From Nitrospirota bacterium (GTDB lineage Bacteria; Nitrospirota; Nitrospiria; Nitrospirales; Nitrospiraceae): DNA of 55,414 nucleotides. The translations under genes and the position numbers were made by a program. Each line of letters starts with the position of its first letter. Position 1 is the first letter of the stretch. Positions 837-55,414 of this stretch are shown here, piece by piece. The notes under the pieces were generated by a model. It worked only from the letters and a program-made list of their open reading frames with translations. It made no database searches and was not told the DNA's origin. Where the stretch lies: assembly GCA_020027965.1 (NCBI GenBank), contig JAHRHE010000006.1, forward strand, positions 1-55,414. The letters are read 5' to 3'.

Positions 837-932
837 TTCGTCGCGACACACGCCACGAAGGCAGGCCTAGTCTGTCACCAGGGACATGACAAATCCTCAT
901 GCCAATGAGAAGGACAAAGGAGGGATCGAGCG

Positions 933-2399: not shown

Positions 2400-2437
2400 A
2401 AAGAAGGCTCGGGGCACTGGGCAAGAAACATTTCGCT

Positions 2438-3154: not shown

Positions 3155-3239
3155 CTCTACGACCGCCGTGGCGACAAAAGACACGCACCGAGTTCGCCCA
3201 CCGAGCGCTCGGTGCGTCTTCTCCCGGAATACCAGCACA

Positions 3240-4361: not shown

Positions 4362-4509
4362 CGGTGTTCCTCCTCTTGCGAGCACGCCTATGGAACCGCG
4401 GCATAGTAGCGACAACCGTTTGGCAGGCAAGTATAGCCGAGGTCTTCAGAGAAAAACAGGGCGCTGGAGCGTGATGCCACCCCAGCGCGCATCCTTCCGC
4501 TCGAATGGT

Positions 4510-5640: not shown

Positions 5641-5703
5641 GAACTCGTTCCTCCCCATCTTCTTGTGTGGTTATTCCGGATCACGCTCGCTTTTCTGCAA
5701 ACC

Positions 5704-5759
5704 ATGGTATTCCAAGGACGTTGCGGATCAATAACCGGTGTGTTACAGCCGTGTTAATT
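5704..5759 (-). promoter_or_regulatory. Pho box and promoter of the pstS operon
   Basis: On the minus strand, heptamers AATTAAC, CTGTAAC, CGGTTAT and CCGCAAC repeat every 11 bases with 4-base spacers. The hexamer TACCAT follows exactly 10 bases after the last. This is the same architecture, and nearly the same first three words, as the porin promoter at 781-836. The distance to the pstS start codon is about 64 bases. Confidence 0.65.
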
Positions 5760-5893
5760 CTTGCCGTTCTGAGCCGTTGCGCGGCCGCTCGCTCCGAGTC
5801 TTCGACATGGAATGGCCCGTGTTGAGAATGGCACTGCCTGCGAAAAGAATCGGGGCAGTCGGTGGTTGAACCGCTAGCGATCGGATCCAGGGA

Positions 5894-12450: not shown

Positions 12451-12465
12451 CCCAGAGCCATTACA

Positions 12466-34058: not shown

Positions 34059-37000
34059 ATGCATACGGTCCGACCACCCAATAGCATCTTTTCCGACCTG
34101 GAAGAGCCCATCCGTGCCGAGCTGTTCGGCGTCGAGCGCCTCGAGCAACACGCTGAAAGTCTTGCGGCTGCGCAGATAGTTTTCGCCGAATCGAGGCAGG
34201 GTCGGCTGCTCACTCCGCGCGTCCTGGAGAACGGGCGCGTGTTGCTGGAGTCCTACCGGGCCATTGCCCGTGCGATTCAGGAGGAGCATGCGATTACCTC
34301 CGCAGCCGAGTGGCTGGTCGATAACTTCCACATCGTCGATGAACAGCTTCGCGAGATCCGCGATGACCTGTCCCCCGGCTTTTATCGCCAATTGCCCAAA
34401 CTGGCCGCCGGTCACTTGCAGGACTATCCGCGCGTGTTCGGTGTGGCGTGGGCGTTCGTGGCGCACACGGACAGTCGATTCGACCCGGAACTGCTGCGCC
34501 GCTTTGTGACGGCCTACCAGCGCGTGCAACCGCTCACCATCGGTGAGCTGTGGGCCGTGGCCATCACGCTGCGCGTGGTGCTGGTGGAAAATCTGCGCAG
34601 GCTGGCGGAGCGAATCGTTTGCAGCCGCGCCGCGCGCCAGGAAGCCGACAGGCTGGCCGACAGCCTGCTCGGTACAGGCGGCCAGTCTCCGGTGTCCCCA
34701 TCGACAGCCCTGCGCCGCTTTGAGAATCGGCCTCTGGCGACGGCGTTTGCCGTGCAGCTCGTTCAGCGCTTGCGTGACCTGGATCCCAAGGTGCGCCCCA
34801 TCCTGCTGTGGCTCGACGAGCGCCTGGCCGCGCAGGGCACCACCGCCGACGACATGGTCCACGCCGAGCACCAGCAGCAGGCGGCCATGAGCGTCACCGT
34901 GCGCAACATTATCACCAGCATGCGCTTGACGTCTGCCTTTGTCTGGCCGGACTTTTTTGAGAGCGTCAGCCTGGTGGACGAGATTCTTCGTCGCAGCACC
35001 CACTTCGCCGAGATGGATTTTGCCACCCGAGACAAATACCGCCATGCCATCGAGGATCTCTCACGGGGCTCGGGCTACTCGGAAATTGAAGTGGCTGAAC
35101 GTGTCGTGCAGCGCGCTAACCAGGCGCGCGTTGAGCCGCGCGACGGCGCACAGCCACCCCAGGACCGGCACACGGAGCCTGGCTATTACCTCATCTCGCA
35201 AGGACGTCTGGCCTTTGAGCGCGAACTCGGGTTTCGGGTCTCCTGGAAGCGCTGGCTGCTGCGTGTGTATGTCCGAGCCGCGGTGCCCGGCTACCTGGGA
35301 ACCATTGCTGTCGTGACCGCTGTGATTCTGGCGCTGCCGTTGCTGCATGCCAGTGAGGCGGGCGGCACCGCGAAGATCCTTGTGCTGCTTGGTCTTCTCG
35401 CCGCAGTACCGGCGTCGGACCTGGCCATTGCACTCATCAATCGCGTGGTGATGGCTCTGCTCGGACCGCGAGCGCTGCCCCGGATGGAGTTATGCAATGG
35501 CGTACCGGAAGACTTGCGAACGATCGTGGTCGTACCGACGCTGCTCACCACGCAGCATGCAATCGAAGAGCAGGTCGAGCGACTGGCGGTCCACTATCTG
35601 GCCAATGCCGATGGGGACCTGCGTTTCGCGCTGCTCTCTGACTGGGTGGACGCACCGAGTGAAAGTCTCGCAGGTGATGACGAGCTGCTGGCCGCCGCGG
35701 TGGACGGCGTCGTGCGTCTGAACAAGCGCTATGGCCCCGCGTCCAGCGGTGGCGCTCGCTTCTTGCTCTTCCATCGCAGGCGTGTCTGGAACGAGTGCGA
35801 GCGCACATGGATGGGATGGGAACGCAAGCGAGGGAAGCTGCATGAGCTGAACCAGCTTCTGCGCGGCTCGCGGAACACCACGTTCATCGCCGTCGGGGGG
35901 CGGCCCCCGGAAGCACCGCCGGCGGTTCGCTACGTCATCACGCTCGATGCCGACACGCGCCTGCCGCGTGGCGCTGCGTGCCGCTTGGTCGGCACCATGG
36001 CGCATCCTCTCAACCGGCCGAGATTCGACGCTCGCGCCGGGCGCGTCGTCGAAGGCTACGCGATGGTGCAACCCCGTATCGCACCTTCGCTCCCTGCCGA
36101 TCGGGAGGGCTCGCTCTTCCAAAGGGCCTTTTCCGGCCCGAGCGGTATCGATCCTTATGCCTCGGCCATTTCGGATGTCTACCAGGACTTGTTCCTGGAA
36201 GGGTCCTACACCGGCAAAGGCATTTACGATATCGATGCGTTTGAGGCCGCCCTGGCGGGCAAGGTGCCGGACAATGCGCTGCTAAGCCACGATCTCTTTG
36301 AAGGCATCTTCGCTCGGGCGGCACTGGCCACGGACATTGAGCTGTTTGAAGCATTTCCATCGCACTATGAAGCCGCGGCCGCCCGGCAGAACCGGTGGGC
36401 GCGCGGCGACTGGCAACTTCTGCCCTGGATTCTCGGGCACAACAGAGCATCGGCAGAGGAACGCCACCCTGTCGTCATTCCCGCGATTGGCCGTTGGAAG
36501 ATGCTCGACAACCTCCGTCGCACCCTGTCGGCGCCCGCCGCGTTCCTGACGTTGATTGTTGGGTGGTTGCAGCCGGCGGCGTCTCCCTGGGTGTGGACGG
36601 GCTTTATCCTGGCCACGATTGCGATTCCGGCGCTGCTGTCCTTCATGATCGGGCTACGCCCGCGACGGCGCGGCATATCCATGCGCAGCCATTTTCTCGG
36701 TGTGCTCACCGACCTTGCGCTGGGCGCATCCCAGATCGGCTTGACGGTGACGTTTCTGGCGTACCAGACATGGCTGATGTCTGACGCGATTCTGCGCACC
36801 CTCGGCCGTCTCGTGATCACGCGGAAACATCTGCTGGAGTGGGTGACCGCAGCACAGGCCAAGGATGCGTTCGCGTACAAAATGTTCGGTATGTATACGC
36901 GCATGGCTGGCGGCATGGTCCTCGCCGCTACGGCTGCTGTGGTTCTGGCTTATGGACAGCCTCGCGCCTGGCCCGTAGCGGCCCCGTTCCTCCTTCTCTG

Positions 37001-40000
37001 GGCCGCCGCTCCCGCCATCGCGCGGTGGGTCAGCCTGCCTCCGCGGCTTCCCGGGGTAGAGCCCCTGTCGTCGGCCGATGGGCGGGCTCTTCGATTGATT
37101 GCACGCCGGACGTGGCGCTTCTTCGAGGCGTTTGTTGGTCCCGCGGATCACGCGCTTCCTCCCGATAATTTTCAGGAAGAGCCCAAACCCATCGTGGCCC
37201 GCCGCACGTCGCCTACCAATATGGGGCTGTATCTTCTCTCCACGGTTGCCGCGCGTGACTTAGGGTGGCTGGGCACCGTGGAGGCCGTTGAGCGGCTGGA
37301 AACCACGCTGGCGACTATGAGCCGCCTGGAACTGTTTCACGGCCACTTTTACAACTGGTACGACACGCGCGAACTCCATCCGCTCGAGCCCAAGTATGTG
37401 TCCTCGGTGGACAGCGGCAATCTCGCCGGGCATCTGCTGGCCCTGGGCAACGCGTGCCGCGAGTTAATGCAGAAGTCGTCCGTCGGACCGAATCTGCTCG
37501 CCGGAGTGGACGATGCCATCCGGTTGTTGCGCGAAGCGCTCGCCGACATCCCGGACACGCGTCGCACGCACACCGTCACGCGGAAGCAGCTCAGCAATGC
37601 CGTCGACGCGCTGGCCTCCGCGCTTGACTCGCTGCCCGTCGATGCCGCCGACTGGGCGGCGCGTTTCGTCGACCTGAGGGCGCGTGCCCACACCGTCGCG
37701 GACATGACGCAAGCCTTGGCGCAAGAGCGCGGGGACGCTCCCGATTCCGAGTTGCGCGCCTGGGCCGATGCCACCAGAGCGTGCCTCGAAAGCCACGTCC
37801 GAGACGTGGAAATGTTGATTCCGTGGGCACGCCTGAGCTCGAAAGAGATTGCGGCCATGGCCGAACGTCCTCCAGACCAAGCGCCCGAGTGGGTGGCGAT
37901 TGCGCCGTTCTTCCATTCCGTTCCCACGCTGGCGGACGCTCCGGAACGGTGTGACGCCGCTCTCAGTGAGCTTGTTGCGCTGCGCGCACGCCTGCTCAAC
38001 AATTCTCCGGCGAACAGTGACACACTGGCGCGGATCGATGCGTTGGCCCAAGCCATGAGGCATTCGGCCGCGGATGCCGCCGCGCTCATTCGCCGCCTTT
38101 CGGCGGTCACACAGACTGCGGAGCTCATGTTTCGCGCGATGGATTTCAACTTTCTGTTTGACGATACGCGCAAGCTGTTTTCCATCGGCTACCGCGTCAC
38201 AGACGGCAGCCTGGATCCCAGCTGTTACGACCTTCTCGCTTCGGAGGCGCGGCTCACGAGCTTCATCGCCATCGCCAAGGGCGACGTTCCGCCGTCGCAC
38301 TGGTTTCGCCTGAACCGCGCGCTTACGCCGGTGGGTCGCGGTTCCGCGCTCATCTCGTGGTCGGGCTCGATGTTCGAATACCTGATGCCGGAGCTGGTGA
38401 TGCGTTCTCCGGTGGGCAGCCTGCTGAACCAGACGTGCGAACTGGTCGTGCGCCGGCACATCGCCTACGGAACGGAGCACGGCTTGCCCTGGGGAGTGTC
38501 GGAGTCGGCATACAATGCGCGCGACCTCGACCTCACGTACCAATATTCCAGCTTTGGTGTGCCTGGGCTGGGGCTCAAGCGCGGCCTCAGCGAAGATGTC
38601 GTCGTCGCGCCGTATGCCACCGCGCTCGCGGCCATGATCGATCCTGCCGCGGCCACGCACAACTTTGCGCGACTTGCCGAAGCCGGCGGCAGGGGAGCGT
38701 ATGGTTTCTACGAAGCGCTCGATTACACCAGCACCCGGTTGCCCGAAGGCAAAGACGTCGCCGTCGTGCGTGCCTACATGGCGCACCACCAGGGCATGTT
38801 ATTGGTCGCGTTCGCCAACGTGCTAAACGATGGCGCGATGCGGACCCGCTTCCACGCCGAGCCCACTGTGCAGGCCACCGAGCTGTTGCTGCAGGAACGC
38901 ACGCCGCGCGACGTGCTGGTCGCACGGCCTCGCGCCGAAGAAGTCTCCGCTGCGGCGCAGGTCCGCGAACTCATTCCGCCGGTGCTGCGCCGGTTTACCA
39001 CGCCGCACGATGTGATCCCGCGGACGCATCTCCTTTCCAACGGACGGTACACGGTGATGCTGACTGTGGCGGGCTCAGGGTACAGCCGCTGGCGGGATAT
39101 TGCGGTCACGCGCTGGCGCGAGGATGCCACGCGGGACTGCTGGGGCACGTACATCTTTCTTCGCGATGCGCAGACCGGCGAGGTCTGGTCGGCAGGCTAT
39201 CAGCCCAGCGGCGTCGAACCCGATGCGTATGAGGCCTCCTTCTGCGAAGACCATGGCGAGATTATCCGGCGCGATGGCGCACTGACCACCACGCTCGAAG
39301 TCGTTGTGTCGTCCGAGGACGATGCTGAAGTGCGGCGCGTCTCCCTCACCAATCTGGGGGCACGCACGCGCGACATTCAGGTCACGTCGTATGCCGAGCT
39401 GTCCCTGGCTTCGCAGGCCGCCGATATGGCACACCCGGCGTTTTCCAACTTGTTTGTGCAGACGGAATTCGTACCCGATGTCGGCGCGCTGCTGGCGACG
39501 CGCCGCAGGCAATCCGATAAGGACACGGCGGTGTGGGCCGCACACGTGGTCGTTCTGGAAGGCGCAACCGTTGGCGACCTGCAATTCGAGACGGACCGCG
39601 CGCGGTTCCTCGGACGCGGGCACCACGCCCGCAATCCCGTCTCGATGATCGACGGCCGGCCACTCTCGAATACCGTCGGTTCCGTCCTCGACCCGGTGAT
39701 GAGCCTGCGGCGCACGGTGAGCATCCCGCCAGGCACCACCGCGCGCATTGTGTTTGCCACGATCGTCGCTCCCACCCGCGAGCAGGTCCTGGATCTGACA
39801 GACAAGTACCGTGACCCGAGAGTGTTTGAGCGCACCCTGCCGCTGGCCTGGACGCAGGCGCAAGTCCAACTTCACCATCTGGGTATCGGTCATGACGAAG
39901 CGCAGGTGTTCCAGAGACTGGCCAATGCCGTGCTGTACTCAGACGCGTCGCTACGGCCGTCCTCGGATGTGCTCAGCCGGAGCACGCTGGACCGTTCCGC

Positions 40001-42860
40001 ACTGTGGGCCCACGGCATCTCCGGCGATCTGCCCATTGTGCTGGCGCGCATCGACGACGCGCAGGATGTCGAGATCGTCCGGCAATTGCTCCGCGCGCAT
40101 GAATACTGGCGTATGAAGCAGTTGTCCGCCGACGTGGTCATTATGAATGAAAAGCCGTCGTCGTATCGACAGGAGCTGCAGGGCTCCCTGGAAGCGCTTG
40201 TGCGCGGCAGCCAGCTGCGGCTTTCCCCGGACACCAGCGGCGTAAGCGGCAAGATTGTCCTCCTGCGGGCAGACCTGATCTCTGTGCAGGACCGTACGCT
40301 GCTGCAAACTGTCGCGCGGGTGGTGCTGCTCAGCCGGCGGGGCACATTGTCCGAGCAGGTCACTAGGTCGCAGCGCACGGACGCTGCGGCACCTCCGGCG
40401 CCGCGATCGCTGCGCCAGGGCAAACGTCTGGATGTTACGCCGTCTGTGCCGGACCTCGAATTCTTTAACGGCCTTGGCGGCTTCGCGGAGAATGGCCGGG
40501 AATATGTCACCCTCCTTGGCGAAGGCCTGCGCACGCCCCGGCCGTGGATCAACGTCATCGCGAATCCATCGTTTGGCTTCCTCGTGTCGGAATCGGGTTC
40601 AGGCTTCACCTGGTCGCTCAACAGCCACGACAACCAGCTGACGCCATGGTCAAACGATCCCGTGTCCGACCCGCCCGGAGAAGCCATCTACATCCGCGAT
40701 GAAAGCACGGGTGAGGTGTGGAGTCCCACGGCGCTGCCGATTCGCGATGAAACGGCTCCGTATGTGGCGCGCCACGGTCAGGGCTACAGCCGCTTCCAGC
40801 ATGGCTCGCACGGCATCCTGACTGAGCTGTTGCAATTCGTTCCGTCTGAAGACCCGATGAAGATTTCGCAGCTCATCCTGCAGAATGCGTCCGGCCGCTC
40901 CCGTCGCCTCTCCGTGACCGCGTATGCCGAGTGGGTACTGGGCAGCTCGCGCAGCGCCTCGGCCCCGTACATCATCACGGAGATCGATTCGCAGACGGGA
41001 GCGCTCCTCGCGCGGAGCGCGTGGCGCGGCGAGTTTGGCGGGCGCGTAGCCTTCGCAGATCTGGCCGGTCGGCAGACGTCCTGGACGGGCGACCGCACAG
41101 AGTTTTTGGGTCGCAATGGCACGCCCGAACGTCCCGCGGCGCTTGAGCGAGCCGATCACCTGTCTGGAAAGGTGGGCGCGGGTCTCGATCCGTGCGCCGC
41201 GCTGCAAACTACGCTTGAGTTGCCTCCCGGCGCGCGCGCAGAACTTGTGTGGTTCCTGGGTCAGACGGACAGTAGGGAACACGTGCGCGAGTTGCTCGGC
41301 CGCTATCGCGCCGCAGACCTCAGCGGAATCTTGCACAACGTCACCGGCCAATGGGACGACGTGCTCGGCACCGTACAGATCACCACCCCCGACCGGGCCA
41401 TGGATGTGCTGCTGAATCGTTGGCTGCTCTACCAGACGCTGGCTTGCCGTGTCTGGGCGCGCGCGGCGTTCTATCAGGTGAGTGGCGCGTATGGCTTCCG
41501 CGACCAGCTCCAGGATGTGATGGCCCTCAGCGTTGCTCAACGCGACGTGACGCGCGAGCATTTGCTGCGCGCGGCCGGACGCCAGTTCACCGAGGGTGAC
41601 GTCCAGCACTGGTGGCATCCGCCCTCGGGACGCGGCGTGCGCACGCGCATCTCCGACGACCTTCTCTGGCTACCATACGCCGTCATCCACTTCATCGAAG
41701 CCACCGGCGACATGACTGTACTCGACGAAGTCGTACCCTTTTTGGAAGGCGATGTGCTGGCCGAGGGACAACACAAATCGTACTTTCAGCCGCGCGTGTC
41801 TGAGACTCGCGCAACACTCTTTGAACATTGCGCGCGAGCGCTGGACCACAGCCTCGCCGTCGGCGACCACAGCCTCCCGCTGATGGGCACGGGCGACTGG
41901 AATGACGGCATGAACCGAGTCGGCCAGCAGGGCAAGGGAGAAAGCGTCTGGCTCGGCTGGTTCCTGCATACGCTTCTCTGGGAGTTTGCCAAAGTTGCGG
42001 CTGCGCGCGGCGAGCACAATCGCGCGGAGACGTGGCGGCTCCACGTCAGTGCACTCAAAGCGGCGCTCGAGCGAGAAGCGTGGGACGGCGAATGGTACCG
42101 GCGCGCGTACTTTGATGACGGCACACCGCTAGGCTCCGCCACAAACCCGGAGTGCCGCATCGACTCCATCGCTCAATCCTGGGGAGTCATCAGCGGCGCT
42201 GCAGAACCGGGCCGCGGAGCGCGGGCCATGGCCGCCGTGGAGCAGCATCTGGTGCGCCGGCCGGAGGGGCTGATTGTGCTCTTCACACCGCCCTTTGACC
42301 GCACGCCGCGTGACCCCGGCTACATCAAAGGGTACGTGCCCGGCATCCGTGAAAACGGCGGCCAATACACGCATGCTGCCGTGTGGGCGGTTCTGGCTTT
42401 CGCAGCACTCGGCGACGGCGATAAGGCCGGCGAGCTGTTCCGGATGCTGAATCCAATCAACCGGACCACCTCTCGTGCGAACGTGCAGCGTTACAAAGTC
42501 GAGCCTTACGTGGTTGCGGGCGACGTGTATGCCGAGCCTCCACACGTCGGGCGGGGTGGCTGGACCTGGTACACGGGTGCGGCGGGCTGGCTCTATCGCG
42601 CCGGCATGGAATGGATGCTCGGATTCCGCGTGCGCGGCACGACGCTCTGCATCGATCCTTGCATCCCGCGCCACTGGCCCGGTTACTCCATCCGCTTTCG
42701 GTATCACTCGGCTATCTATGACATCGCGGTGGACAATCCACGCGGCGTCACCCGCAGCGTGGCTCTGACTGAACTGGATGGCAAGCCGCTTGCCGGCAGT
42801 GCATCTATTCCACTCGTAGACGACGGCGCCGTGCATCAGATCCGCATCGTGCTGGGCTAA
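34059..42860 (+). CDS. Cyclic beta-1,2-glucan synthase (GT84-GH94)
   Basis: A 2933-residue membrane enzyme of normal length for the NdvB/Cgs family. Order: N-terminal helical domain (1-395); first membrane segments (about 400-470); GT84 glycosyltransferase (about 485-800) with TLDADTRLP near 624-632 and QNRWARGDWQL near 776; more membrane segments (820-990); a glycoamylase-like domain (about 1010-1610, MAHHQGMLLVAFANVL); and two GH94-like regions, the last (about 2125-2933) with TGDWNDGMN near 2610. The family polymerises UDP-glucose into beta-1,2-glucan and cyclises it with the GH94 part controlling length. The product is periplasmic or secreted and acts in osmotic adaptation and host contact. 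No export gene (ndvA type) is in the window. The start lies at the end of the broken beta-propeller gene and has no ribosome-binding site that I can see. Confidence 0.93.
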   Translation: MHTVRPPNSIFSDLEEPIRAELFGVERLEQHAESLAAAQIVFAESRQGRLLTPRVLENGRVLLESYRAIARAIQEEHAITSAAEWLVDNFHIVDEQLREIRDDLSPGFYRQLPKLAAGHLQDYPRVFGVAWAFVAHTDSRFDPELLRRFVTAYQRVQPLTIGELWAVAITLRVVLVENLRRLAERIVCSRAARQEADRLADSLLGTGGQSPVSPSTALRRFENRPLATAFAVQLVQRLRDLDPKVRPILLWLDERLAAQGTTADDMVHAEHQQQAAMSVTVRNIITSMRLTSAFVWPDFFESVSLVDEILRRSTHFAEMDFATRDKYRHAIEDLSRGSGYSEIEVAERVVQRANQARVEPRDGAQPPQDRHTEPGYYLISQGRLAFERELGFRVSWKRWLLRVYVRAAVPGYLGTIAVVTAVILALPLLHASEAGGTAKILVLLGLLAAVPASDLAIALINRVVMALLGPRALPRMELCNGVPEDLRTIVVVPTLLTTQHAIEEQVERLAVHYLANADGDLRFALLSDWVDAPSESLAGDDELLAAAVDGVVRLNKRYGPASSGGARFLLFHRRRVWNECERTWMGWERKRGKLHELNQLLRGSRNTTFIAVGGRPPEAPPAVRYVITLDADTRLPRGAACRLVGTMAHPLNRPRFDARAGRVVEGYAMVQPRIAPSLPADREGSLFQRAFSGPSGIDPYASAISDVYQDLFLEGSYTGKGIYDIDAFEAALAGKVPDNALLSHDLFEGIFARAALATDIELFEAFPSHYEAAAARQNRWARGDWQLLPWILGHNRASAEERHPVVIPAIGRWKMLDNLRRTLSAPAAFLTLIVGWLQPAASPWVWTGFILATIAIPALLSFMIGLRPRRRGISMRSHFLGVLTDLALGASQIGLTVTFLAYQTWLMSDAILRTLGRLVITRKHLLEWVTAAQAKDAFAYKMFGMYTRMAGGMVLAATAAVVLAYGQPRAWPVAAPFLLLWAAAPAIARWVSLPPRLPGVEPLSSADGRALRLIARRTWRFFEAFVGPADHALPPDNFQEEPKPIVARRTSPTNMGLYLLSTVAARDLGWLGTVEAVERLETTLATMSRLELFHGHFYNWYDTRELHPLEPKYVSSVDSGNLAGHLLALGNACRELMQKSSVGPNLLAGVDDAIRLLREALADIPDTRRTHTVTRKQLSNAVDALASALDSLPVDAADWAARFVDLRARAHTVADMTQALAQERGDAPDSELRAWADATRACLESHVRDVEMLIPWARLSSKEIAAMAERPPDQAPEWVAIAPFFHSVPTLADAPERCDAALSELVALRARLLNNSPANSDTLARIDALAQAMRHSAADAAALIRRLSAVTQTAELMFRAMDFNFLFDDTRKLFSIGYRVTDGSLDPSCYDLLASEARLTSFIAIAKGDVPPSHWFRLNRALTPVGRGSALISWSGSMFEYLMPELVMRSPVGSLLNQTCELVVRRHIAYGTEHGLPWGVSESAYNARDLDLTYQYSSFGVPGLGLKRGLSEDVVVAPYATALAAMIDPAAATHNFARLAEAGGRGAYGFYEALDYTSTRLPEGKDVAVVRAYMAHHQGMLLVAFANVLNDGAMRTRFHAEPTVQATELLLQERTPRDVLVARPRAEEVSAAAQVRELIPPVLRRFTTPHDVIPRTHLLSNGRYTVMLTVAGSGYSRWRDIAVTRWREDATRDCWGTYIFLRDAQTGEVWSAGYQPSGVEPDAYEASFCEDHGEIIRRDGALTTTLEVVVSSEDDAEVRRVSLTNLGARTRDIQVTSYAELSLASQAADMAHPAFSNLFVQTEFVPDVGALLATRRRQSDKDTAVWAAHVVVLEGATVGDLQFETDRARFLGRGHHARNPVSMIDGRPLSNTVGSVLDPVMSLRRTVSIPPGTTARIVFATIVAPTREQVLDLTDKYRDPRVFERTLPLAWTQAQVQLHHLGIGHDEAQVFQRLANAVLYSDASLRPSSDVLSRSTLDRSALWAHGISGDLPIVLARIDDAQDVEIVRQLLRAHEYWRMKQLSADVVIMNEKPSSYRQELQGSLEALVRGSQLRLSPDTSGVSGKIVLLRADLISVQDRTLLQTVARVVLLSRRGTLSEQVTRSQRTDAAAPPAPRSLRQGKRLDVTPSVPDLEFFNGLGGFAENGREYVTLLGEGLRTPRPWINVIANPSFGFLVSESGSGFTWSLNSHDNQLTPWSNDPVSDPPGEAIYIRDESTGEVWSPTALPIRDETAPYVARHGQGYSRFQHGSHGILTELLQFVPSEDPMKISQLILQNASGRSRRLSVTAYAEWVLGSSRSASAPYIITEIDSQTGALLARSAWRGEFGGRVAFADLAGRQTSWTGDRTEFLGRNGTPERPAALERADHLSGKVGAGLDPCAALQTTLELPPGARAELVWFLGQTDSREHVRELLGRYRAADLSGILHNVTGQWDDVLGTVQITTPDRAMDVLLNRWLLYQTLACRVWARAAFYQVSGAYGFRDQLQDVMALSVAQRDVTREHLLRAAGRQFTEGDVQHWWHPPSGRGVRTRISDDLLWLPYAVIHFIEATGDMTVLDEVVPFLEGDVLAEGQHKSYFQPRVSETRATLFEHCARALDHSLAVGDHSLPLMGTGDWNDGMNRVGQQGKGESVWLGWFLHTLLWEFAKVAAARGEHNRAETWRLHVSALKAALEREAWDGEWYRRAYFDDGTPLGSATNPECRIDSIAQSWGVISGAAEPGRGARAMAAVEQHLVRRPEGLIVLFTPPFDRTPRDPGYIKGYVPGIRENGGQYTHAAVWAVLAFAALGDGDKAGELFRMLNPINRTTSRANVQRYKVEPYVVAGDVYAEPPHVGRGGWTWYTGAAGWLYRAGMEWMLGFRVRGTTLCIDPCIPRHWPGYSIRFRYHSAIYDIAVDNPRGVTRSVALTELDGKPLAGSASIPLVDDGAVHQIRIVLG

Positions 42861-46265: not shown

Positions 46266-49200
46266 GTGGGCTTCTCGTCGACCAGAACCAACCGTTGGCC
46301 GATCGTCATCGCAGCTCTCGCGCTGCTCCTGTTGGCCCTGCCTGCCTCACTGGTCTGGGCGGCCCCACAGAATCGGAATCTCTTCGGTCAAGAGCAATTC
46401 ACCCGCACGAGCGGCGCCACGAATATCTTTCAGCGCACCTTCACCATCCCCGCCTACGTCTCCGGCCCCTACCAGTTGCACATCATTAATGGGGACCCCT
46501 CGTCGGGCAGCGATCGGGTCGGCATTGAAGATGCCGTGTCCGCCGGGCGGGTGCTCGTCGATGGTATCGAAGTGGTCGTCCCCAACGAGTTCTCCCACGC
46601 CGTCGCCACCCTTGACAAGCCCCTGGCCCTCGCTGCGGGCTCGCACACATTGGAGATCCAGCTCGCCAGTGCGCCCGAGAGTTTCATTCGCCTGACAATC
46701 TCAGGCGTGATCGCCTTAGGCGATCTCACGCAAGCCCGCGCGGGCCATGCGGGAACCCTGTTGCCTGACGGGACCGTCCTGGTGACCGGGGGCACGGGCG
46801 TGAGCGGAGTCCTGTCCAGCGCAGAGCGGTACGATCCGGTGACGCTGCACGCGACCGCGCTCACCAGCCCGCTTTCGACGCCCCGCTCCGAGCACAGTGG
46901 GACCCTGCTTCCCCAGACTGACAGTCTGCTGATCGCCGGTCATGACAATCTGGGTGTGCTCTTTAGCATCGAGCTCTTCCGGCTCAGCGATCAAACCTTC
47001 CAGGCGCTGACGCCGCCGGTGCAGGTGTTGCGGTCTGGCCATGCGGCGACGGGCCTGCTGGAGGGAAGAATCTTAATCACTGGGGGCCAGTCCTCGGGCG
47101 CCCTCAGCTCTGCCGAAGAGTTCAATGCCCAGACCGTGATTCTCTTCAAGCCCGCCTTCGATCCGGAAACCGGCACCTTCACGGTGCTCGCCAACGGCCT
47201 GCACACTGCGCGCTGGGATCACACAGCCACGCTCTTGCCCGATGGGCGTGTGCTGCTCACCGGGGGCCGGAACGAGACCGGGTTCCTCAATTCGGCCGAG
47301 CTCTTCGATCCCGTGACCGAAACGTTTACGCTGCTGACAGCCACGCTCACCACGCCGCGTGCCGGGCATGCGGCCACCTTGCTGCCAGATGGTCGGGTGC
47401 TGCTCCTGGGCGGGGAGCATGCCTCCGGGGTGCTGGCCACCGCCGAGGTATGGACCCCGGCCACCGGCACTTTTACGGCTCTCACCCAGAGCCTGCTGAC
47501 GCCGCGGGCCAACCACACCGCGACTCTCCTGCCCTATGGCGAGGTCTTGATCACGGGCGGGCAGACCACCGGCGGCACCATCCTGGCGACCACCGAGTTC
47601 TACGGCCCGCCGGCGGTGGATGCCCTTGCGCCGATCGTGCACGACGTGTCGCCCCCGACCGGCGCCCTCGGCGTGGATCTCACCCAGATCGTCGGCGTGC
47701 GCTTCTCCGAGCCGGTGGATGTGCGGACGCTTACGGCCACGAGCATGACGCTCAGCGGCGGCGCCAGCGCAGTCCCGGCGACGATCAGCCCGGGCGAGTC
47801 AGGGCTGATGGTCTTCCTCGTGCCAACCGCCCCGCTTGCCGCCGGGACGACCTATACGCTCTCGCTGACGGCGGCAATCAAAGACACGGCCGGCAACGCG
47901 CTGGCCGCCTTCACCAGTTCGTTTACCACCGTCGCGGCCCCCACCATCACCAACTTTACGCCCACCAGTGGCACGCCGGGCACCGTGGTCACGATCAGCG
48001 GCACGAACTTCGATCCCGTCGTCTCGAAGAACGAGGTAAGGTTCAATGGAGTCCTCGCCTTGGTGACGGCCGCGTCGGCCACGAGCCTCATGACCACGGT
48101 ACCCTCGGGCGCCACCACCGGCCCCATCACCGTCACCACGCGGGGCGGCACGGCCACGAGCGGGAGCAATTTCACCGTCATCACCGCCCTGCCGCCCACT
48201 ATCAGTGGGTTCAGCCCGGCGGCCGGCCATCTGGGCTCCCTCGTCACGGTCATCGGGACGAACTTTGATCCCGCGCCGAGCGGGAACCAGGTCCGCCTCG
48301 GCGGCGTCCTGGTCACGGTGCAGTCGGCAACGTCCACCCAACTGGTCGTCTCGGTGCCGACAGGGGTTGCGTCGGGCCTCGTCGCGGTGACGACCGCCGG
48401 AGGCTCAGCGCAGAGTGCGAGCGCCTTCACGGTGATCGCCATGACCGCGCTGTCAGTCACGCCGGGCCAAGCCACGCTGCCGGTGGGCAGTGGCCACGCG
48501 TTCCGGGGGACCGCCACCTTCACGGATCAGACCAGCAGCGACGTGACGAGCCTGATGAGTTGGGTGAGCTCCACTCCTGCCAGCGCGACCGTCACCGCCG
48601 CCGGGGTCGCGCAGGGTGTCGCGGTCGGCACCGCGACGATCACGGGCTCGTTGGGCACCTTCAGCGCCACCGGGGCCGTCCAGGTCATCGCGGCCACGCC
48701 CGGGGGGCCGCCGCTGCCGCCGGATCCCAGCAGCGTCGCGCCCACGCTGGATCGAACCGTCGCCACCACGCTGGGCGCGGCCACCGCGTTTCTCTACACC
48801 AGTGCGAATCCGATTCAGACCGGGGTGGCGGCGGGCACGATTCAGCCGCTCCGCGCGGCTGTGATCCGGGGCATCGTCCGCACCCGCGACGGCTTTCCGC
48901 TCCCCGGTGTCACCATCACAGTGCTCGGCCATCCGGAATTCGGGCAGACGGTCACGCGCCCGGACGGGAGGTTCGACTTCGCGGTCAACGGCGGCGGGCC
49001 GCTCACGCTGACGTACAGCAAAGCCACCTTCTTGCCCGCCCAGCGGCAGGTCTCGGTGCCCTGGCAGGATTACGCGGTGGCGCCGGACGTGGTGCTGATT
49101 GCCTACGATCCGCAGGTCACGACGATTGACCTGACCCTCCCCACGCTGCAGGTCGCGCGCGGGAGCGTCATGACGGACGCGGACGGCACGCGCCAGGCCA

Positions 49201-52200
49201 CCCTGCTGTTCCCGCCCGGCACCACAGCCACCATGACCCTGCCCAGTGGCGGCACCCAGCCCCTGACCATGCTCCAGGTGCGCGCGACGGAGGCCACCGT
49301 CGGCCCGACCGGGCCCCAGGCCATGCCCGCGGAACTCCCGGCGACCAGCGGCTACACGTACGCGGTGGCCTACACGGTGGACGAGGCCGTCGCCGCCGGG
49401 GCCACGACCGTGCACTTCTCCCAGCCGGTCATCTCCTATGTCGACAACTGGTTGACCTTCCCGGTCGGCACCGTCGTCCCGTCCGGCTTCTACGACCCTG
49501 CGCGTGGGGTCTGGGTGCCCTCGCTGAACGGGCAGGTCGTCAAGATGCTGAGCGTGAGCGGCGGGCTCGCCGCGTTGGATACGGATGGCGATGGCACGGC
49601 CGATGGGGCGGCAGCCCTGGCGGCGCTGGGGATCACGGACGCCGAGCGCCTGCAGCTCGCCTCGCTCTATCAACCCGGGCAGAGCTTCTGGCGCGTCCCC
49701 GTGGCACATTTTAGTAGCTGGGACAGTAACTGGGGCTTTGGCCCGCCCCCGGAGGCGGTGACGGCCCGCGTCCGGAAGCGGCCGCCGCTACGCGGGCAGC
49801 CAGACTGCCAACCCTCCTCGATCATCCGCTGCCAGACGCAGGCCCTAGCCGAATCCGTGGCCCTCGCCGGCACGCCCTATCGCCTGCAGTACCAGAGTGA
49901 CCGGGTGCGGGGGTATGGCGCCGGCTATCAGGCGACGCTCCCGCTCAGCGGAGCGAGTCTGCCCGCGAGCCTGAAGCGGATTGACGTGGAGGTGCTGGTG
50001 GCGGGGCAGCGCTTCTTCCAGTCCTTTCCGGCGACGCCCAATCAGTCGACCACCGTGACGTGGGATGGCCAGGACGCCTATGGGCGCCCCGTGCAGGGCC
50101 GACAGCTCGTCACCGCGCGCATTGGCTATGTCTATGATGGGGTGTACCAGCAGACCGCACGCTTCGGCTACACCGGCAATGGCACGGCCATCACCGGCGA
50201 TCCGACGCGTCGGCAGGTGACGCTGTGGGAGGAGCTCCATGAGACCATCGGGGCCTGGGACGCGACCGCGCAGCGCCTGGGAGGCTGGCAGCTCACCGTG
50301 CACCATGCCTACGATCCCCTGGATCGCACCCTCTATCTAGGCGATGGCACGACGCGCAGCGCGAGCGCCATGAGCCCGGTCATTCTCACGGTCGCGGGGA
50401 ATGGCGGGGGCGGCTCGACGGGGAATGGCGGTCCGGCGATCCAGGCGGAGCTGGGAGACCCCAGTGGGGTCGCCCTGGCGGCGGACGGGAGCCTCTACAT
50501 CGCGCATCTCTGTCAAGTCCGCAAGGTCGAGGTGAGCGGGAGCATCGCCCTGGTTGCGGGGGGAACCGCCTGCGGGTTCAGTGGTGACGGAGGGCCGGCC
50601 ACCGCGGCGCAACTCAATGGGGCGGTCGCGCTCGCCCTGGCCTCGGACGGCAGCCTGTACATCGCTGACCGGGGTAACCAGCGCATCCGTCGGGTCGATG
50701 CCGCGGGGATCATCACGACCGTCGCGGGGGATGGGACCTTGGGCTCCGGTGGGGACGGGGGGCCAGCCACGGCGGCCCAATTGTTTGTGCCCACCGGGGT
50801 CGCGGTGGCCCCGGATGGGAGCGTCTACCTCGCCGACGGCTTTGACGTCGGCCGCCTCCGGCGGGTCGGGACGGACGGCACGATCACGACGGTGGTCTCC
50901 GGCTTGGGGTCGCTTCGGGGCATCGCGGCCGGGCCGGAGGGCAGCCTCTATGTGCTCGAGGCGTCGAATCGGCTCCGCCGCGTGGGCCCCGACGGGACGC
51001 TCACCACCGTGGCCGGCACGGGGAACCCCGCGGGGGGATTTAGCGGCGACGGAGAGCCCGCCACGGCGGCCCTGCTCAACGCGCCCACGGGGGTCGCGGT
51101 GGGACCGGATGGGAGCCTCTTCATCGCCGACGCCGTCAACAAGCGCGTTCGGCAGGTGGGACTGGACGGGATCATCCGCACGGCGGTCGGCACCGGGACC
51201 TCCGGCTTCGGCGGCGACGGAGGGCCGGCGCTGGCGGCGCTGGTGAGCCTGTCGTTCGGCGGAGATCCCACGGGCCTGGCCGTGGCGCCCGACTTCAGCT
51301 TCTACCTCTGCGACCGGTTCAACCACCGGGTCCGCCGGGTGGCGCCGCCGTTCCAGGGGGTGTCGCTGGGGGAGATCGCCATCCCCGCCGAAGATGGGAG
51401 CGAAGTCTACGTCTTCACCCAAGCGGGCCGTCACCTGCGGACGCTGGACGCGCTGACGGGGGCCCTGCGCACGCAGTTCACCTACACCGGCAGCGGGCTC
51501 CTGACTGCCGTGACCGACGCCGACGGCCAGGTCACGACCATCGAGCGGGACGGGGGAGGGAATCCCACCGCCGTCGTCGCCCCCGGCGGCCAGCGCACGA
51601 CGCTCACCATCTACGGGGACGGCTCCCTGGCCTCGATCACGAATCCGGCGAATGAGACCACGGCCCTGACCTACGCCACCGATGGACTCCTGGCCACCCT
51701 GCAAGATCCCCGGGTGAATACGCATCGCTACACGTACGATGCGCTGGGACGGCTCAGTCGGGATGAAGACGCGGCCACGGGCTTCAAGGCGCTCGCACGA
51801 ACGGAGCAAGCGACGGGGTGGACCGTCGCCGTGAGCACGGCGCTGAATCGGACGACGACCTATCAAGTCGAGAATCTCGCCATTGGGGATCAGCGGCGCA
51901 CGGTCACGGAGCCGACTGGCTTGCTGACCACCACCCTGAGTCAGGCCAACGGCACCACCACGCTCACCGCGCCCGAGGGGACGCTCACCACGACCGTGGA
52001 AGGCGCCGATCCGCGCTGGGGGATGCAGGCGCCGCTGCTCAAGACCTTGACCGTGCAGACCCCCGGCGGGCTGACCTCCACCCTCAGCACGACCCGGGGG
52101 GTGAGCCTGTCGAACCTCGCCGACCCCTTCAGTCTGACGAGCCAGACCGACACGCTCGTTATCAACGGACGGACGTATACGAGCACCTATACGCAAGCCA

Positions 52201-54419
52201 CGCGGCTGCTGACCACGACCACCCCGGCCAGCCGCACGAGCAACGTCACGCTTGATGCCAAAGGCCGAGTCACTCAAGAACAAGTCACGGGCTTGGAACC
52301 CGTCGCCTACACGTATGATTCGCTCGGAAGGCTCTCCACCATCACCCAGGGCACGGGCGTGGATGCGCGGACGTCCTCGCTCGCCTACAACAGCAAGAAT
52401 GAACTCGTGAGCCTCACCGACCCACTCAATCGTACGGTGGGCTTTGCGTACGATCTGGCGGGCCGCATCACGACTCAGACCTTGCCGGATACGCGACAGA
52501 TCAGCTACAGTTACGACGCCAATGGGAATGTCACCGCCATCACCCCGCCAGGGAAGCCCGCGCATACGTTTGCGTACACGCCGGTCGATCTGGAATCACA
52601 ATACAGTCCTCCCTCGCCCCTTGCGGGAGAGGGCGGGGGTGAGGGGTTCCGTACCCTCTACACGTATAACCTGGATCGGCAACTGACGCTGGTCACCCGC
52701 CCCGACAGCCAGACTCTCCAACTCGGCTATGAGCCGACCGGCGGGCGGTTGAGCACCCTCACGCTGCCTGGTAGCCAGGTGTTGACATATGCCTACCATC
52801 CGACGACCGGGAATCTCTCGACCATCACCGCACCTGGCGACAGCACGCTGAGCTATTCCTATGACGGATCGTTACTCACCAATACCGCCTGGTCGGGAAC
52901 CGTCGCGGGGAGTGTGGGGCGGACCTACGACAACAATTTCCGGATCACGTCTCAAAGTGTGAATGGCGGCAACACCATCGGTTTCGGCTATGACACCGAC
53001 AGCTTGCTCACTTCGGCGGGTAGTCTGAGCATTGCGCGGTCAGCTCAGCACGGCTTGATCACCGGCACGACGCTCGCTTCGGTGACGGATAGCCGCAGCT
53101 ATAATCCCTTCGGCGAACTCAGCACGTACACGGCGAACGTGAGCGGGAGCCCGGTGTTCTCGGTGCAGTACACGCGGGACAAGCTCGGCCGGATCACGCA
53201 GAAGGTGGAAACCCTCGGCGGGGTCACCGACACGTTTGACTATACGTACGATCTCGCGGGCCGGCTGAAAGAAGTGCAAAAGAACGGGACGGTGACGGCG
53301 ACCTATCTCTATGACTCAAACGGGAACCGCCTCAGTCGGACGACGCCCAGCGGGACCATCCTCGGGTTCTACGACGCGCAGGATCGGCTGACGCAGTACG
53401 GGACGACCACCTCTGCCTACACGGCGAACGGCGAATTGCAGAGCTCAACGGTCGGTGGGCAAACGACGACGTACCAGTACGATGTGTTGGGGAATTTGAA
53501 GTCGGTGGTGGGGCCGACCGGTACGACGATTGAGTACGTGGTGGATGGCCAGAATCGGCGCATCGGCAAGAAGGTCAATGGAGTGCTCGTTCAGGGCTGG
53601 CTGTATCAGAATCAGCTCAACGCGGTGGCGGAGTTGGATGGTGCCGGCAACGTGGTGTCCCGCTTCGTGTACGGGACCAAGGCGAACGTGCCTGACTACC
53701 TGGTGAAGAGCGGCATCACCTACCGCATTGTCAGCGACCATCTCGGCAGTCCCCGCCTCGTGATCAACACGACCGACGGCACCATTGTGCAGCGGATGGA
53801 CTATGACGAGTTCGGCAACATTGCAACCGATACGAATCCTGGTTTTCAGCCGTTTGGCTTCGCCAGCGGGCTCTCTGATCAACACACCGGCCTCGTGCGC
53901 TTCGGCGCGCGAGATTACGACGCCGTCACCGGCCGCTGGACGGCAAAGGATCCGATTCTCTTCTATGGTCAAGACACAAACCTTTTTGCATATCTCGATA
54001 GCGACCCCATAAATGGGACTGATCCTCTGGGCCTCCAGCCAATTGGTCCACCTCCAGTACCAGTGCCAGGTGGAAAGCCAATCGCTAAATGGAAGTGGAA
54101 TCCTGACCCGCAAAATCGCAGAGGAGGAACGTGGGGTCCACAAGAGCCGATACCGGGGCAAAGCCAGCCGTCAGCTAGTCGTGATCCTGCTGGTCATTGG
54201 GATGTTGATGATGGCAAGGGTAATCGCCAGCGCTATAGTGACCAAGGGAAACCAATATCAGCGGAGGAAGCACATGGGAGATCCCCACGGACACTCCCAG
54301 GGACACCAGCTCCCATCCCGCCTCTCGGCGGAGGGTTAGTCTGCCCAGTTCCCCTCATATTGCCGCCTCTTCTAGAAGATGCCATAAGAGAAGCCATCAG
54401 TGGTGGGGGAATAAGTTAG
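46266..54419 (+). CDS. Giant secreted RHS protein with Kelch, Ig/TIG, NHL domains and variable tail
   Basis: 2717 residues, GTG start, signal peptide to about residue 33. Parts: Kelch/galactose-oxidase-type propeller (155-441, LLPDGRVLLTGG repeats); SbsA-like Ig domain (455-556); two IPT/TIG domains (557-723); BIG2 domain (725-808); carboxypeptidase-regulatory-like domain (861-948); NHL propeller (1368-1693, five or six repeats of the GDGGPATAA type); RHS/YD shell (1721-2556); and the core end (2546-2588, DYDAVTGRWTAKDPILF...DPLGL). After DPLGL a unique 128-residue tail begins, with KWKWNPDP and GHWDVDDGKGNRQRY and a hydrophobic end. RHS shells encapsulate a C-terminal toxin, which is released by cleavage. 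The tail fits this position and its DNA is AT-richer. Toxin activity is unknown. The next gene is a likely immunity gene. Confidence 0.9.
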   Translation: MGFSSTRTNRWPIVIAALALLLLALPASLVWAAPQNRNLFGQEQFTRTSGATNIFQRTFTIPAYVSGPYQLHIINGDPSSGSDRVGIEDAVSAGRVLVDGIEVVVPNEFSHAVATLDKPLALAAGSHTLEIQLASAPESFIRLTISGVIALGDLTQARAGHAGTLLPDGTVLVTGGTGVSGVLSSAERYDPVTLHATALTSPLSTPRSEHSGTLLPQTDSLLIAGHDNLGVLFSIELFRLSDQTFQALTPPVQVLRSGHAATGLLEGRILITGGQSSGALSSAEEFNAQTVILFKPAFDPETGTFTVLANGLHTARWDHTATLLPDGRVLLTGGRNETGFLNSAELFDPVTETFTLLTATLTTPRAGHAATLLPDGRVLLLGGEHASGVLATAEVWTPATGTFTALTQSLLTPRANHTATLLPYGEVLITGGQTTGGTILATTEFYGPPAVDALAPIVHDVSPPTGALGVDLTQIVGVRFSEPVDVRTLTATSMTLSGGASAVPATISPGESGLMVFLVPTAPLAAGTTYTLSLTAAIKDTAGNALAAFTSSFTTVAAPTITNFTPTSGTPGTVVTISGTNFDPVVSKNEVRFNGVLALVTAASATSLMTTVPSGATTGPITVTTRGGTATSGSNFTVITALPPTISGFSPAAGHLGSLVTVIGTNFDPAPSGNQVRLGGVLVTVQSATSTQLVVSVPTGVASGLVAVTTAGGSAQSASAFTVIAMTALSVTPGQATLPVGSGHAFRGTATFTDQTSSDVTSLMSWVSSTPASATVTAAGVAQGVAVGTATITGSLGTFSATGAVQVIAATPGGPPLPPDPSSVAPTLDRTVATTLGAATAFLYTSANPIQTGVAAGTIQPLRAAVIRGIVRTRDGFPLPGVTITVLGHPEFGQTVTRPDGRFDFAVNGGGPLTLTYSKATFLPAQRQVSVPWQDYAVAPDVVLIAYDPQVTTIDLTLPTLQVARGSVMTDADGTRQATLLFPPGTTATMTLPSGGTQPLTMLQVRATEATVGPTGPQAMPAELPATSGYTYAVAYTVDEAVAAGATTVHFSQPVISYVDNWLTFPVGTVVPSGFYDPARGVWVPSLNGQVVKMLSVSGGLAALDTDGDGTADGAAALAALGITDAERLQLASLYQPGQSFWRVPVAHFSSWDSNWGFGPPPEAVTARVRKRPPLRGQPDCQPSSIIRCQTQALAESVALAGTPYRLQYQSDRVRGYGAGYQATLPLSGASLPASLKRIDVEVLVAGQRFFQSFPATPNQSTTVTWDGQDAYGRPVQGRQLVTARIGYVYDGVYQQTARFGYTGNGTAITGDPTRRQVTLWEELHETIGAWDATAQRLGGWQLTVHHAYDPLDRTLYLGDGTTRSASAMSPVILTVAGNGGGGSTGNGGPAIQAELGDPSGVALAADGSLYIAHLCQVRKVEVSGSIALVAGGTACGFSGDGGPATAAQLNGAVALALASDGSLYIADRGNQRIRRVDAAGIITTVAGDGTLGSGGDGGPATAAQLFVPTGVAVAPDGSVYLADGFDVGRLRRVGTDGTITTVVSGLGSLRGIAAGPEGSLYVLEASNRLRRVGPDGTLTTVAGTGNPAGGFSGDGEPATAALLNAPTGVAVGPDGSLFIADAVNKRVRQVGLDGIIRTAVGTGTSGFGGDGGPALAALVSLSFGGDPTGLAVAPDFSFYLCDRFNHRVRRVAPPFQGVSLGEIAIPAEDGSEVYVFTQAGRHLRTLDALTGALRTQFTYTGSGLLTAVTDADGQVTTIERDGGGNPTAVVAPGGQRTTLTIYGDGSLASITNPANETTALTYATDGLLATLQDPRVNTHRYTYDALGRLSRDEDAATGFKALARTEQATGWTVAVSTALNRTTTYQVENLAIGDQRRTVTEPTGLLTTTLSQANGTTTLTAPEGTLTTTVEGADPRWGMQAPLLKTLTVQTPGGLTSTLSTTRGVSLSNLADPFSLTSQTDTLVINGRTYTSTYTQATRLLTTTTPASRTSNVTLDAKGRVTQEQVTGLEPVAYTYDSLGRLSTITQGTGVDARTSSLAYNSKNELVSLTDPLNRTVGFAYDLAGRITTQTLPDTRQISYSYDANGNVTAITPPGKPAHTFAYTPVDLESQYSPPSPLAGEGGGEGFRTLYTYNLDRQLTLVTRPDSQTLQLGYEPTGGRLSTLTLPGSQVLTYAYHPTTGNLSTITAPGDSTLSYSYDGSLLTNTAWSGTVAGSVGRTYDNNFRITSQSVNGGNTIGFGYDTDSLLTSAGSLSIARSAQHGLITGTTLASVTDSRSYNPFGELSTYTANVSGSPVFSVQYTRDKLGRITQKVETLGGVTDTFDYTYDLAGRLKEVQKNGTVTATYLYDSNGNRLSRTTPSGTILGFYDAQDRLTQYGTTTSAYTANGELQSSTVGGQTTTYQYDVLGNLKSVVGPTGTTIEYVVDGQNRRIGKKVNGVLVQGWLYQNQLNAVAELDGAGNVVSRFVYGTKANVPDYLVKSGITYRIVSDHLGSPRLVINTTDGTIVQRMDYDEFGNIATDTNPGFQPFGFASGLSDQHTGLVRFGARDYDAVTGRWTAKDPILFYGQDTNLFAYLDSDPINGTDPLGLQPIGPPPVPVPGGKPIAKWKWNPDPQNRRGGTWGPQEPIPGQSQPSASRDPAGHWDVDDGKGNRQRYSDQGKPISAEEAHGRSPRTLPGTPAPIPPLGGGLVCPVPLILPPLLEDAIREAISGGGIS
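52606..52650. repeat. Palindromic repeat inserted in frame in the RHS shell
   Basis: CCTCGCCCCTTGCGGGAGAG and GGGCGGGGGTGAGG (together about 35 bases) encode SPLAGEGGGEG within the shell. The encoded peptide is a well-known product of intergenic palindromes in many bacteria. It breaks the YD pattern between HTFAYTPVDLE and LYTYNLDRQLTLV. The rhs fragment at the end of the window has no such insertion up to its last base. Confidence 0.6.
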
Positions 54420-54474
54420 TGCTTCAGGAACAAATAAGTCTATTACTCTGACCTTCAAAAAAGGGCGATCCACG

Positions 54475-54996
54475 TTGCGAATAATTGACGAGCGAGAGAC
54501 GCTGCGCTGGTTATCTGCAAGAGAGCTATTGGACTCCAGTGGCCAGCCTTCGTTTTCCGGGTTTCATCAGGCCATATGTTCTCCAATCCCTGTCGATTCA
54601 GGACATAAAACTGCTCTGAGCAGAGCCATCGTCTCGTTTTTCGATGCCGACGAAGAAGCGTTGCTATGGATCGATGAGTTTAAGATCTGGCCGTCTGCGG
54701 AAGATTGGTATCTTTTTAATGGGTTCCGCCAGTTCCTTGGTGAGCCTGGTTCTTTGTCTGAAAAGCCGGGACATATTTTTTCGAAGAATGATCTTGATGC
54801 TGTGGGTTCTTTAGTGGCGATGGTTCTTTATTTCTGTTCGGGAGCAATTTTGTTTTCACCCGCCAAGGGTCTAGCAATAAGGATCTCCCACGACGAGTTC
54901 ATTGATATATATGTGAGAGACCAAAAGGATGCTCCGATTATAACTGAGAAGCTGAAACCCTTCCTTGAGAGTGGAGAAAAGCATCAAAAGCAATAA
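54475..54996 (+). CDS. Candidate immunity protein for the RHS toxin tail
   Basis: A 173-residue protein starting at TTG 54475, 55 bases after the RHS stop. It is acidic, aromatic and low in Ala and Gly compared with neighbours, and its DNA is AT-richer than the window. Motifs LLWIDEFKIWPS, WYLFNGFRQFLGEPG, KPGHIF and ISHDEFIDIY recall a family often placed after toxins in polymorphic loci (from memory; unverified). It would be a cytoplasmic protein that binds and neutralises the tail of the upstream protein in the producing cell. AAAAAGGGCGATCC precedes the start. Confidence 0.6.
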   Translation: MRIIDERETLRWLSARELLDSSGQPSFSGFHQAICSPIPVDSGHKTALSRAIVSFFDADEEALLWIDEFKIWPSAEDWYLFNGFRQFLGEPGSLSEKPGHIFSKNDLDAVGSLVAMVLYFCSGAILFSPAKGLAIRISHDEFIDIYVRDQKDAPIITEKLKPFLESGEKHQKQ

Positions 54997-55304: not shown

Positions 55305-55414
55305 GCTTACCATACGACGCCAATGGCAATGTGACGAGTATCACGCCGCCCGGCAAGCCGGCGCACACGTTTGCCTATACGCCGGTGGACCTGGAGCAGG
55401 ATTATGTTCCTCCA
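55305..55414 (+). pseudogene. Displaced RHS core fragment (continues outside the window)
   Basis: The reading frame 55308-55414 gives YDANGNVTSITPPGKPAHTF followed by AYTPVDLEQDYVPP, matching the shell at residues about 2081-2113 of the gene above (52511-52612) almost word for word. The match begins abruptly at about 55307, and nothing similar precedes it. It is an orphan piece of an rhs gene, probably left by recombination when the C-terminal module was exchanged. Confidence 0.75.

What the first reader, a model, noticed from the sequence alone, without database searches (positions are those of the whole stretch)
46266..54996. RHS toxin locus with an unusual multi-propeller N-terminus and a candidate new toxin-immunity pair
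The N-terminus joins a Kelch propeller, four Ig-like domains, a carboxypeptidase-regulatory domain and an NHL propeller before the RHS shell. This is a large cell-surface adhesion or recognition arm. The tail after DPLGL has GHWDVDDGKGNRQRY and no catalytic motif I recognise. The AT-rich gene behind it has the layout of an immunity gene.
Basis: partly seen in the sequence, partly recalled or inferred. Interest (0 to 1): 0.65.

Follow-up and report, generated by a model that had tools for sequence, protein, structure and literature searches.

The report
Bacterial teneurin carrying new toxin-immunity pair
This is a bacterial relative of teneurins, the animal nerve-cell adhesion proteins: a shell built to carry a toxin, followed by the likely antidote gene; the toxin and antidote match no named family but recur together in two other bacteria, one of them from a different phylum.

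Summary
Window 46266-54419 encodes a 2717-aa protein with a Kelch propeller, four Ig-like domains (Big_5, TIG, TIG, Big_2), a TTR/carboxypeptidase-regulatory-like domain, an FN-plug, an NHL propeller and a YD/RHS shell. A 55-base gap separates it from a 173-aa gene whose G+C (46%) is lower than that of any same-sized stretch sampled in the rest of the window. The closest solved structures are the bacterial teneurin-like protein (TLP) of Bacillus inaquosorum, described in 2026 as a shell-encased toxin with a downstream immunity gene. The arm is therefore not a new architecture, but Nitrospirota is not among the six phyla in that survey, and this genome holds three TLP genes. The toxin-immunity reading gains support: the same tail with a homologous gene 23-55 bases behind it occurs in another Nitrospirota genome, on a non-teneurin RHS chassis, and in a Chloroflexi genome, on a core fragment. 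Neither part matches Pfam, NCBIfam, PADLOC or PDB. Distant homologues of the 173-aa protein also occur without RHS neighbours, which fits orphan immunity genes. Toxicity and biochemical activity remain unshown.

The parts
46266..54419 (+). Teneurin-like protein (TLP), 2717 aa
   Evidence: Pfam TTR_TEN1-4, FN-plug_TEN1-4, TEN_NHL, TEN_YD-shell above cut-off; PDB 9ifo/9pt5 teneurin-like protein, 1592 bits
46266..46361 (+). Sec signal peptide, probably type I, residues 1-32 (WPIVIAALALLLLALPASLVWA); no lipobox seen
   Evidence: read from the sequence by eye; no predictor run
46725..47615 (+). Kelch / galactose-oxidase-type propeller, residues 154-450
   Evidence: Kelch_4 1.1e-35, 5 stretches; PDB Kelch matches
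47622..48659 (+). four Ig-like domains: Big_5, TIG, TIG, Big_2
   Evidence: Big_2 just below its curated cut-off
48849..49097 (+). TTR-like domain (teneurin type)
   Evidence: TTR_TEN1-4 9.4e-26
49800..50141 (+). FN-plug, with C1181 and S1185 matching BiTLP C719 and S724 (internal cleavage site)
50382..51335 (+). NHL propeller (limits approximate)
   Evidence: TEN_NHL 2e-32; PDB alignment
51363..54032 (+). YD/RHS shell ending at DPLG; catalytic R2549, D2562, D2586
   Evidence: TEN_YD-shell 1.8e-41, Rhs_assc_core 4.7e-16; residue spacing as in BiTLP R2103/D2116/D2140
54033..54419 (+). candidate toxin, residues 2590-2717 (128 aa), with one Cys (C2693)
   Evidence: conserved with L002 and L004 tails; no family match; low-confidence all-beta model for residues 20-80
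54475..54996 (+). candidate immunity protein, 173 aa
   Evidence: homologues directly behind the same tail in L002 and L004; alpha/beta model, pLDDT 85, pTM 0.81
55313..55414 (+). start of a second, detached RHS core fragment, cut by the contig end
   Evidence: 82% identical to 52512-52594 and 81-84% to two cassettes on contig C143

Best explanation
The locus encodes a bacterial teneurin-like polymorphic toxin and its immunity protein. The protein is exported by a Sec signal and displays a Kelch/Ig arm at the cell surface. The RHS/YD shell cuts itself at the DPLG motif (R2549, D2562, D2586) and holds the freed 128-aa tail inside. On contact with a neighbouring cell the tail is released or delivered and acts in the target. 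The 173-aa protein stays in the producer's cytoplasm and neutralises the tail. The tail is most likely a small, mainly beta-stranded enzyme acting in the cytoplasm; a metal-independent nuclease is my best guess, at about 40%. Tail and immunity gene travel as one cassette between RHS chassis, teneurin-type or not. Shown here: architecture, conserved cleavage residues, recurrence of the pair, chassis change, nearby detached cassettes. Inferred from the B. inaquosorum and M. fibrata work: display, self-cleavage, encapsulation, killing, immunity. Guessed: the enzymatic activity.
For: All four teneurin-specific domains are present, and the best PDB matches are bacterial TLP 9ifo/9pt5 at 1592 bits against about 349 for animal teneurins. 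R-13-D-24-D spacing is identical to BiTLP R2103/D2116/D2140. The FN-plug Cys and Ser are conserved, and the tail has a Cys as in BiTLP. The paper reports a gene directly downstream of almost all TLP genes and shows toxicity and neutralisation for M. fibrata. In 3 of 3 tail loci found, a homologous gene follows on the same strand after 23-55 bases. The G110 carrier is a PKD-Big_2-TIG-RHS protein without teneurin domains, so the pair moves independently of the chassis. The related TLP in G337 has a different tail and a different downstream gene. Contig C143 of the same genome has detached core-plus-tail cassettes with other tails, as in rhs C-terminal displacement (PMC2935791). The immunity protein has no evident signal peptide or membrane span (read from sequence and model), which points to a cytoplasmic target.
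Against: No toxicity is shown. The tail has no recognised catalytic motif, a low-confidence model and no fold match. Homologues of the 173-aa protein occur without RHS genes, so it may have another role there. No delivery machinery is known for TLPs. Only three examples of the pair were found.
Confidence: 0.82

Rival explanations
1. Same TLP toxin-immunity system, but the tail is membrane-active: the hydrophobic, Pro-rich end (LVCPVPLILPPLLEDAIREAI) inserts into membranes, as proposed for the B. inaquosorum TLP tail.
For: The BiTLP tail is hydrophobic and permeabilises E. coli when exported. The window, L002 and L004 tails each end in a hydrophobic segment (19-residue Kyte-Doolittle mean 1.5-1.6).
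Against: The hydrophobic end is the least conserved part of the tail; the conserved part is the W/HWD beta region. The immunity protein looks cytoplasmic and soluble.
Confidence: 0.22
2. The tail is a non-toxic structural or adhesive cap, and the second gene is an unrelated or regulatory gene.
For: No catalytic motif; Pro- and Trp-rich composition; distant homologues of the second gene stand alone in Acidobacteriota, Planctomycetota and Verrucomicrobiota.
Against: The pair is conserved across chassis types and two phyla, while the TLP in G337 has a different tail and a different second gene. The RHS autocleavage residues are intact.
Confidence: 0.1
3. The tail is a degenerate member of the colicin E3-type ribonuclease fold (Tox-ColE3).
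For: Loose resemblance of HWDVDDGKGNRQRY to the active-site segment of colicin E3 (from memory); a five-strand all-beta model.
Against: The defining residues (R, Dxx[HK], E, H; PMC3482391) are not met: D57 is followed at +3 by D60, at +7 by N64 and at +17 by P74, with no His until H81. No Pfam or PDB match.
Confidence: 0.06

Closest known systems
Bacterial teneurin-like proteins, e.g. Bacillus inaquosorum BiTLP (PDB 9ifo, 9pt5; PMC13018210)
   Same: Ig-like domain(s), TTR, TIP region, FN-plug, NHL, YD-shell, DPxG autocleavage residues at identical spacing, short C-terminal tail with a Cys, gene directly downstream
   Different: Phylum not in the published list of six; Kelch propeller at the N-terminus ('Kelch' does not occur in the paper's main text); tail matches no PDB chain, the BiTLP tail included
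Methylosarcina fibrata TLP and its immunity protein (PMC13018210)
   Same: Layout of TLP followed directly by an immunity gene; shown there to be toxic and neutralised
   Different: That tail is an ADP-ribosyltransferase; this one has no such assignment
Metazoan teneurins 1-4
   Same: TTR, FN-plug, NHL, YD-shell homology (Pfam TEN models, 349 bits to teneurin-3)
   Different: No ABD/Tox-GHH tail recognised; retains the DPxG cleavage motif that mammalian teneurins lack
Rhs loci with displaced C-terminal tips (Jackson 2009, PMC2935791)
   Same: Low-G+C tip and downstream gene, then detached core fragments with other tips
   Different: Chassis is a teneurin-like protein in Nitrospirota; the fragment is 82% identical in DNA to the attached core rather than near-identical

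Membership tests
Bacterial teneurin-like protein | FN-plug, NHL and YD-shell adjacent, in order, in one reading frame | tested here: met
   Pfam FN-plug_TEN1-4, TEN_NHL, TEN_YD-shell above cut-off in order; TLP match over the whole stretch
Bacterial teneurin-like protein | TTR domain followed by a TIP domain | tested here: met
   TTR_TEN1-4 9.4e-26; one continuous alignment 724-1525 to BiTLP 273-1081 spans the TIP region; no separate TIP model was available
Bacterial teneurin-like protein | Autocleavage residues Arg, Asp, Asp of the DPxG motif | tested here: met
   R2549, D2562, D2586, identical spacing; cleavage itself not testable
Bacterial teneurin-like protein | Conserved Ser and nearby Cys at the FN-plug cleavage site | tested here: met
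   PDCQPSSII aligned with DDCNKEGSII
Bacterial teneurin-like protein | Toxin encased in the shell | not testable with these tools
   needs structure or protease protection
Polymorphic toxin-immunity pair | Tail differs between otherwise homologous carriers | tested here: met
   G337 TLP and C143 cassettes have other tails
Polymorphic toxin-immunity pair | Tail and downstream gene co-occur in independent loci | tested here: met
   window, L002, L004
Polymorphic toxin-immunity pair | Tail toxic, neutralised by the downstream protein | not testable with these tools
   experiment needed
Tox-ColE3 (colicin E3-type RNase) | R, Dxx[HK], E, H residues and E3 fold | tested here: not met
   positions +3, +7 and +17 after D57 are D, N and P (and sequence); no PDB match
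Known Imm families (Pfam, NCBIfam) | HMM match of the 173-aa protein above cut-off | tested here: not met
   no match above cut-off for the protein; no Pfam match at all for two homologues

The most novel reading that the evidence does not exclude
The tail and the 173-aa protein found a new toxin family and a new immunity fold, with a new enzymatic chemistry around invariant H55, D57, D60, R65, Y68 and H81 of the tail. It rides on teneurin-like proteins in an environmental phylum not previously listed as carrying them, whose genomes keep stocks of exchangeable tails.
Probability: 0.3. Interest if true: 0.65.

Novelty: new member of a known kind. Interest (0 to 1): 0.45.

Why it matters
Bacterial teneurins are thought to be the source of the receptors that wire animal nervous systems, and few have been described. 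This locus extends them to Nitrospirota, with three genes in one genome. It links teneurin-type and ordinary RHS chassis through one shared toxin cassette, so it speaks directly to how tails are exchanged. It also offers a small, testable toxin-immunity pair that none of the family libraries searched covers.

Tried and rejected
Colicin E3-type RNase: motif residues not met (and sequence). Known families for either part: Pfam, NCBIfam, PADLOC and PHROGs gave nothing above cut-off (the one PHROGs match is to the RHS core part of the L002 protein); PDB by sequence and by fold gave nothing. Plasmids and viral contigs hold no relative. The tail is rare: 2 of 396 Nitrospirota genomes, 0 of 297 genomes of the phylum of Granulicella, 1 of 301 of the phylum of the Chloroflexi MAG, the one being the genome already known. 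A first genome-contig scan with the single sequence found nothing. The idea that the palindromic insert in the shell is a resident REP repeat was rejected: its core sequence occurs once in the genome. Joining the window's end to contig C143 could not be proven.

Full report
Observation. The 2717-aa ORF 46266-54419 and the 173-aa ORF 54475-54996 are present as described. Pfam finds, in order, Kelch repeats, Big_5, two TIG, Big_2 (just under its cut-off), a TTR-like/carboxypeptidase-regulatory-like domain, NHL and RHS/YD repeats. The second gene has 46.0% G+C; none of 1070 windows of the same size in the rest of the window is as low.

What it is. The best Pfam models are those built for teneurins: TTR_TEN1-4, FN-plug_TEN1-4, TEN_NHL and TEN_YD-shell. 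Among solved structures the bacterial teneurin-like protein (9ifo, 9pt5) is far ahead with 1592 bits; animal teneurins follow with about 349. A 2026 paper (PMC13018210) describes this class: a shell-encased toxic tail, self-cleavage at a DPxG motif and a gene directly downstream of almost all TLP genes, shown for M. fibrata to be an immunity gene. The catalytic Arg, Asp and Asp of B. inaquosorum TLP (R2103, D2116, D2140) correspond to R2549, D2562 and D2586 at identical spacing. [quoted passage not shown] The tail has a single Cys, C2693; in BiTLP a tail Cys bonds to the FN-plug Cys. The N-terminus has a signal peptide, read by eye, without a lipobox.

Host. The locus MHDY01000005 (a Nitrospirae MAG) carries the same homologue, on a contig of the same length, as genome G084, which the tool lists as 'same phylum' as the window, so the window is from that phylum. 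The paper lists six TLP phyla, and Nitrospirota is not among them. The same genome holds two more TLP genes on contigs C244 and C65, both with Kelch, Ig-like and teneurin domains but cut or broken within the shell. Relatives G337 and G711 each have one match to the TTR-to-NHL region.

The pair. A search of 296 genomes of the phylum with the 173-aa protein found two homologues besides itself. One, in G110, lies 53 bases behind an RHS protein whose tail is plainly the same as the window's (WKWSPDDGNRRGG...KHWDVNDGKGNPRQRY). A profile scan of the 84,980-species collection found a third pair in a Chloroflexi MAG (L004, 46% identity in the best segment, gap 23 bases), where the carrier is a core fragment. 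The tail profile matches 2 of 396 genomes of the phylum, and both carry the gene. The G110 carrier has PKD, Big_2, TIG and RHS repeats and no teneurin domain, so the pair is portable between chassis. The TLP of G337 has a different tail and a different downstream gene. Invariant polar residues of the tail in all three are R30, H55, D57, D60, R65, Y68 and H81, tail numbering.

Detached cassettes. The last 100 bases of the window are the start of another RHS core fragment, 82% identical to 52512-52594, and the contig ends there. Contig C143 of the same genome carries the end of one and two further core-fragment-plus-tail cassettes, each followed by a small gene, with other tails, including one with a HEAGHLLGLE zinc-protease motif. 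Behind the G337 TLP and its downstream gene there is also a detached core fragment. This is the layout that Jackson et al. explain by C-terminal displacement (PMC2935791). 'Orphan' and 'cassette' do not occur in the main text of the TLP paper.

Homologues of the 173-aa protein without RHS. Relatives at about 24-33% identity stand alone in Acidobacteriota, Planctomycetota, Verrucomicrobiota and one Nitrospirota genome, and the six of these genomes searched have no such tail. In a small tree the RHS-linked members do not form one clade: the window and L004 group together and L002 falls beside the Acidobacteriota set. Orphan immunity genes would look like this, but another function of the solitary copies is not excluded.

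Mechanism. The immunity protein has a confident alpha/beta model (pLDDT 85, pTM 0.81) with no relative in the PDB. The tail model is weak (pLDDT 63; residues 20-80 near 80, five strands) and has no fold match, which for a model of this quality is not strong evidence. A cytoplasmic soluble immunity protein and conserved polar residues favour an enzyme acting in the cytoplasm; nucleases are a common class of such toxins (general knowledge of polymorphic toxins), hence my guess. A membrane-active tail is the main rival. The colicin E3 motif is not met.

Judgement. The architecture is a known kind, newly placed in this phylum. The toxin-immunity pair is a good candidate for a new family, with recurrence as its main support and no functional test.

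Noticed in passing
window 52606-52640 (residues about 2190-2205): A G+C-rich palindromic insert (CCCCTTGCGGGAGAGGG) codes for SPPSPLAGEGGGEGF inside the YD shell, in place of a short loop in the paralogues on C65 and C244. Its core occurs once in the genome.
   Followed up: partly
L030 (G000:C143) 1-6229: Array of RHS core fragments with different tails, each followed by a small gene; one tail has a HEAGHLLGLE zinc-protease motif, and a TPR gene follows the first tail.
   Followed up: partly
L030 2825-3175: Another Trp-rich tail (KWEWRYPEGERR...PEGHWDYN) weakly resembling the window tail (30% over 43 aa, E 0.08), with an unrelated downstream gene; possibly a wider class of 'GHWD' tails.
   Followed up: partly
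L020 (G000:C65) about 785: The TLP reading frame is broken in the shell and continues in another frame to the contig end; pseudogene or assembly error.
   Followed up: no
L022 (G337:C42) 11853-13233: Detached YD-shell fragment behind the TLP downstream gene, followed by a gene that looks like a REP-associated (RAYT-type) transposase; judged by eye.
   Followed up: no
L004 1-891: A second RHS core fragment with a different tail lies just upstream of the Chloroflexi pair.
   Followed up: no
window 34059-42860: 2933-aa glycoside hydrolase 94 protein of the cyclic beta-glucan synthase type.
   Followed up: no
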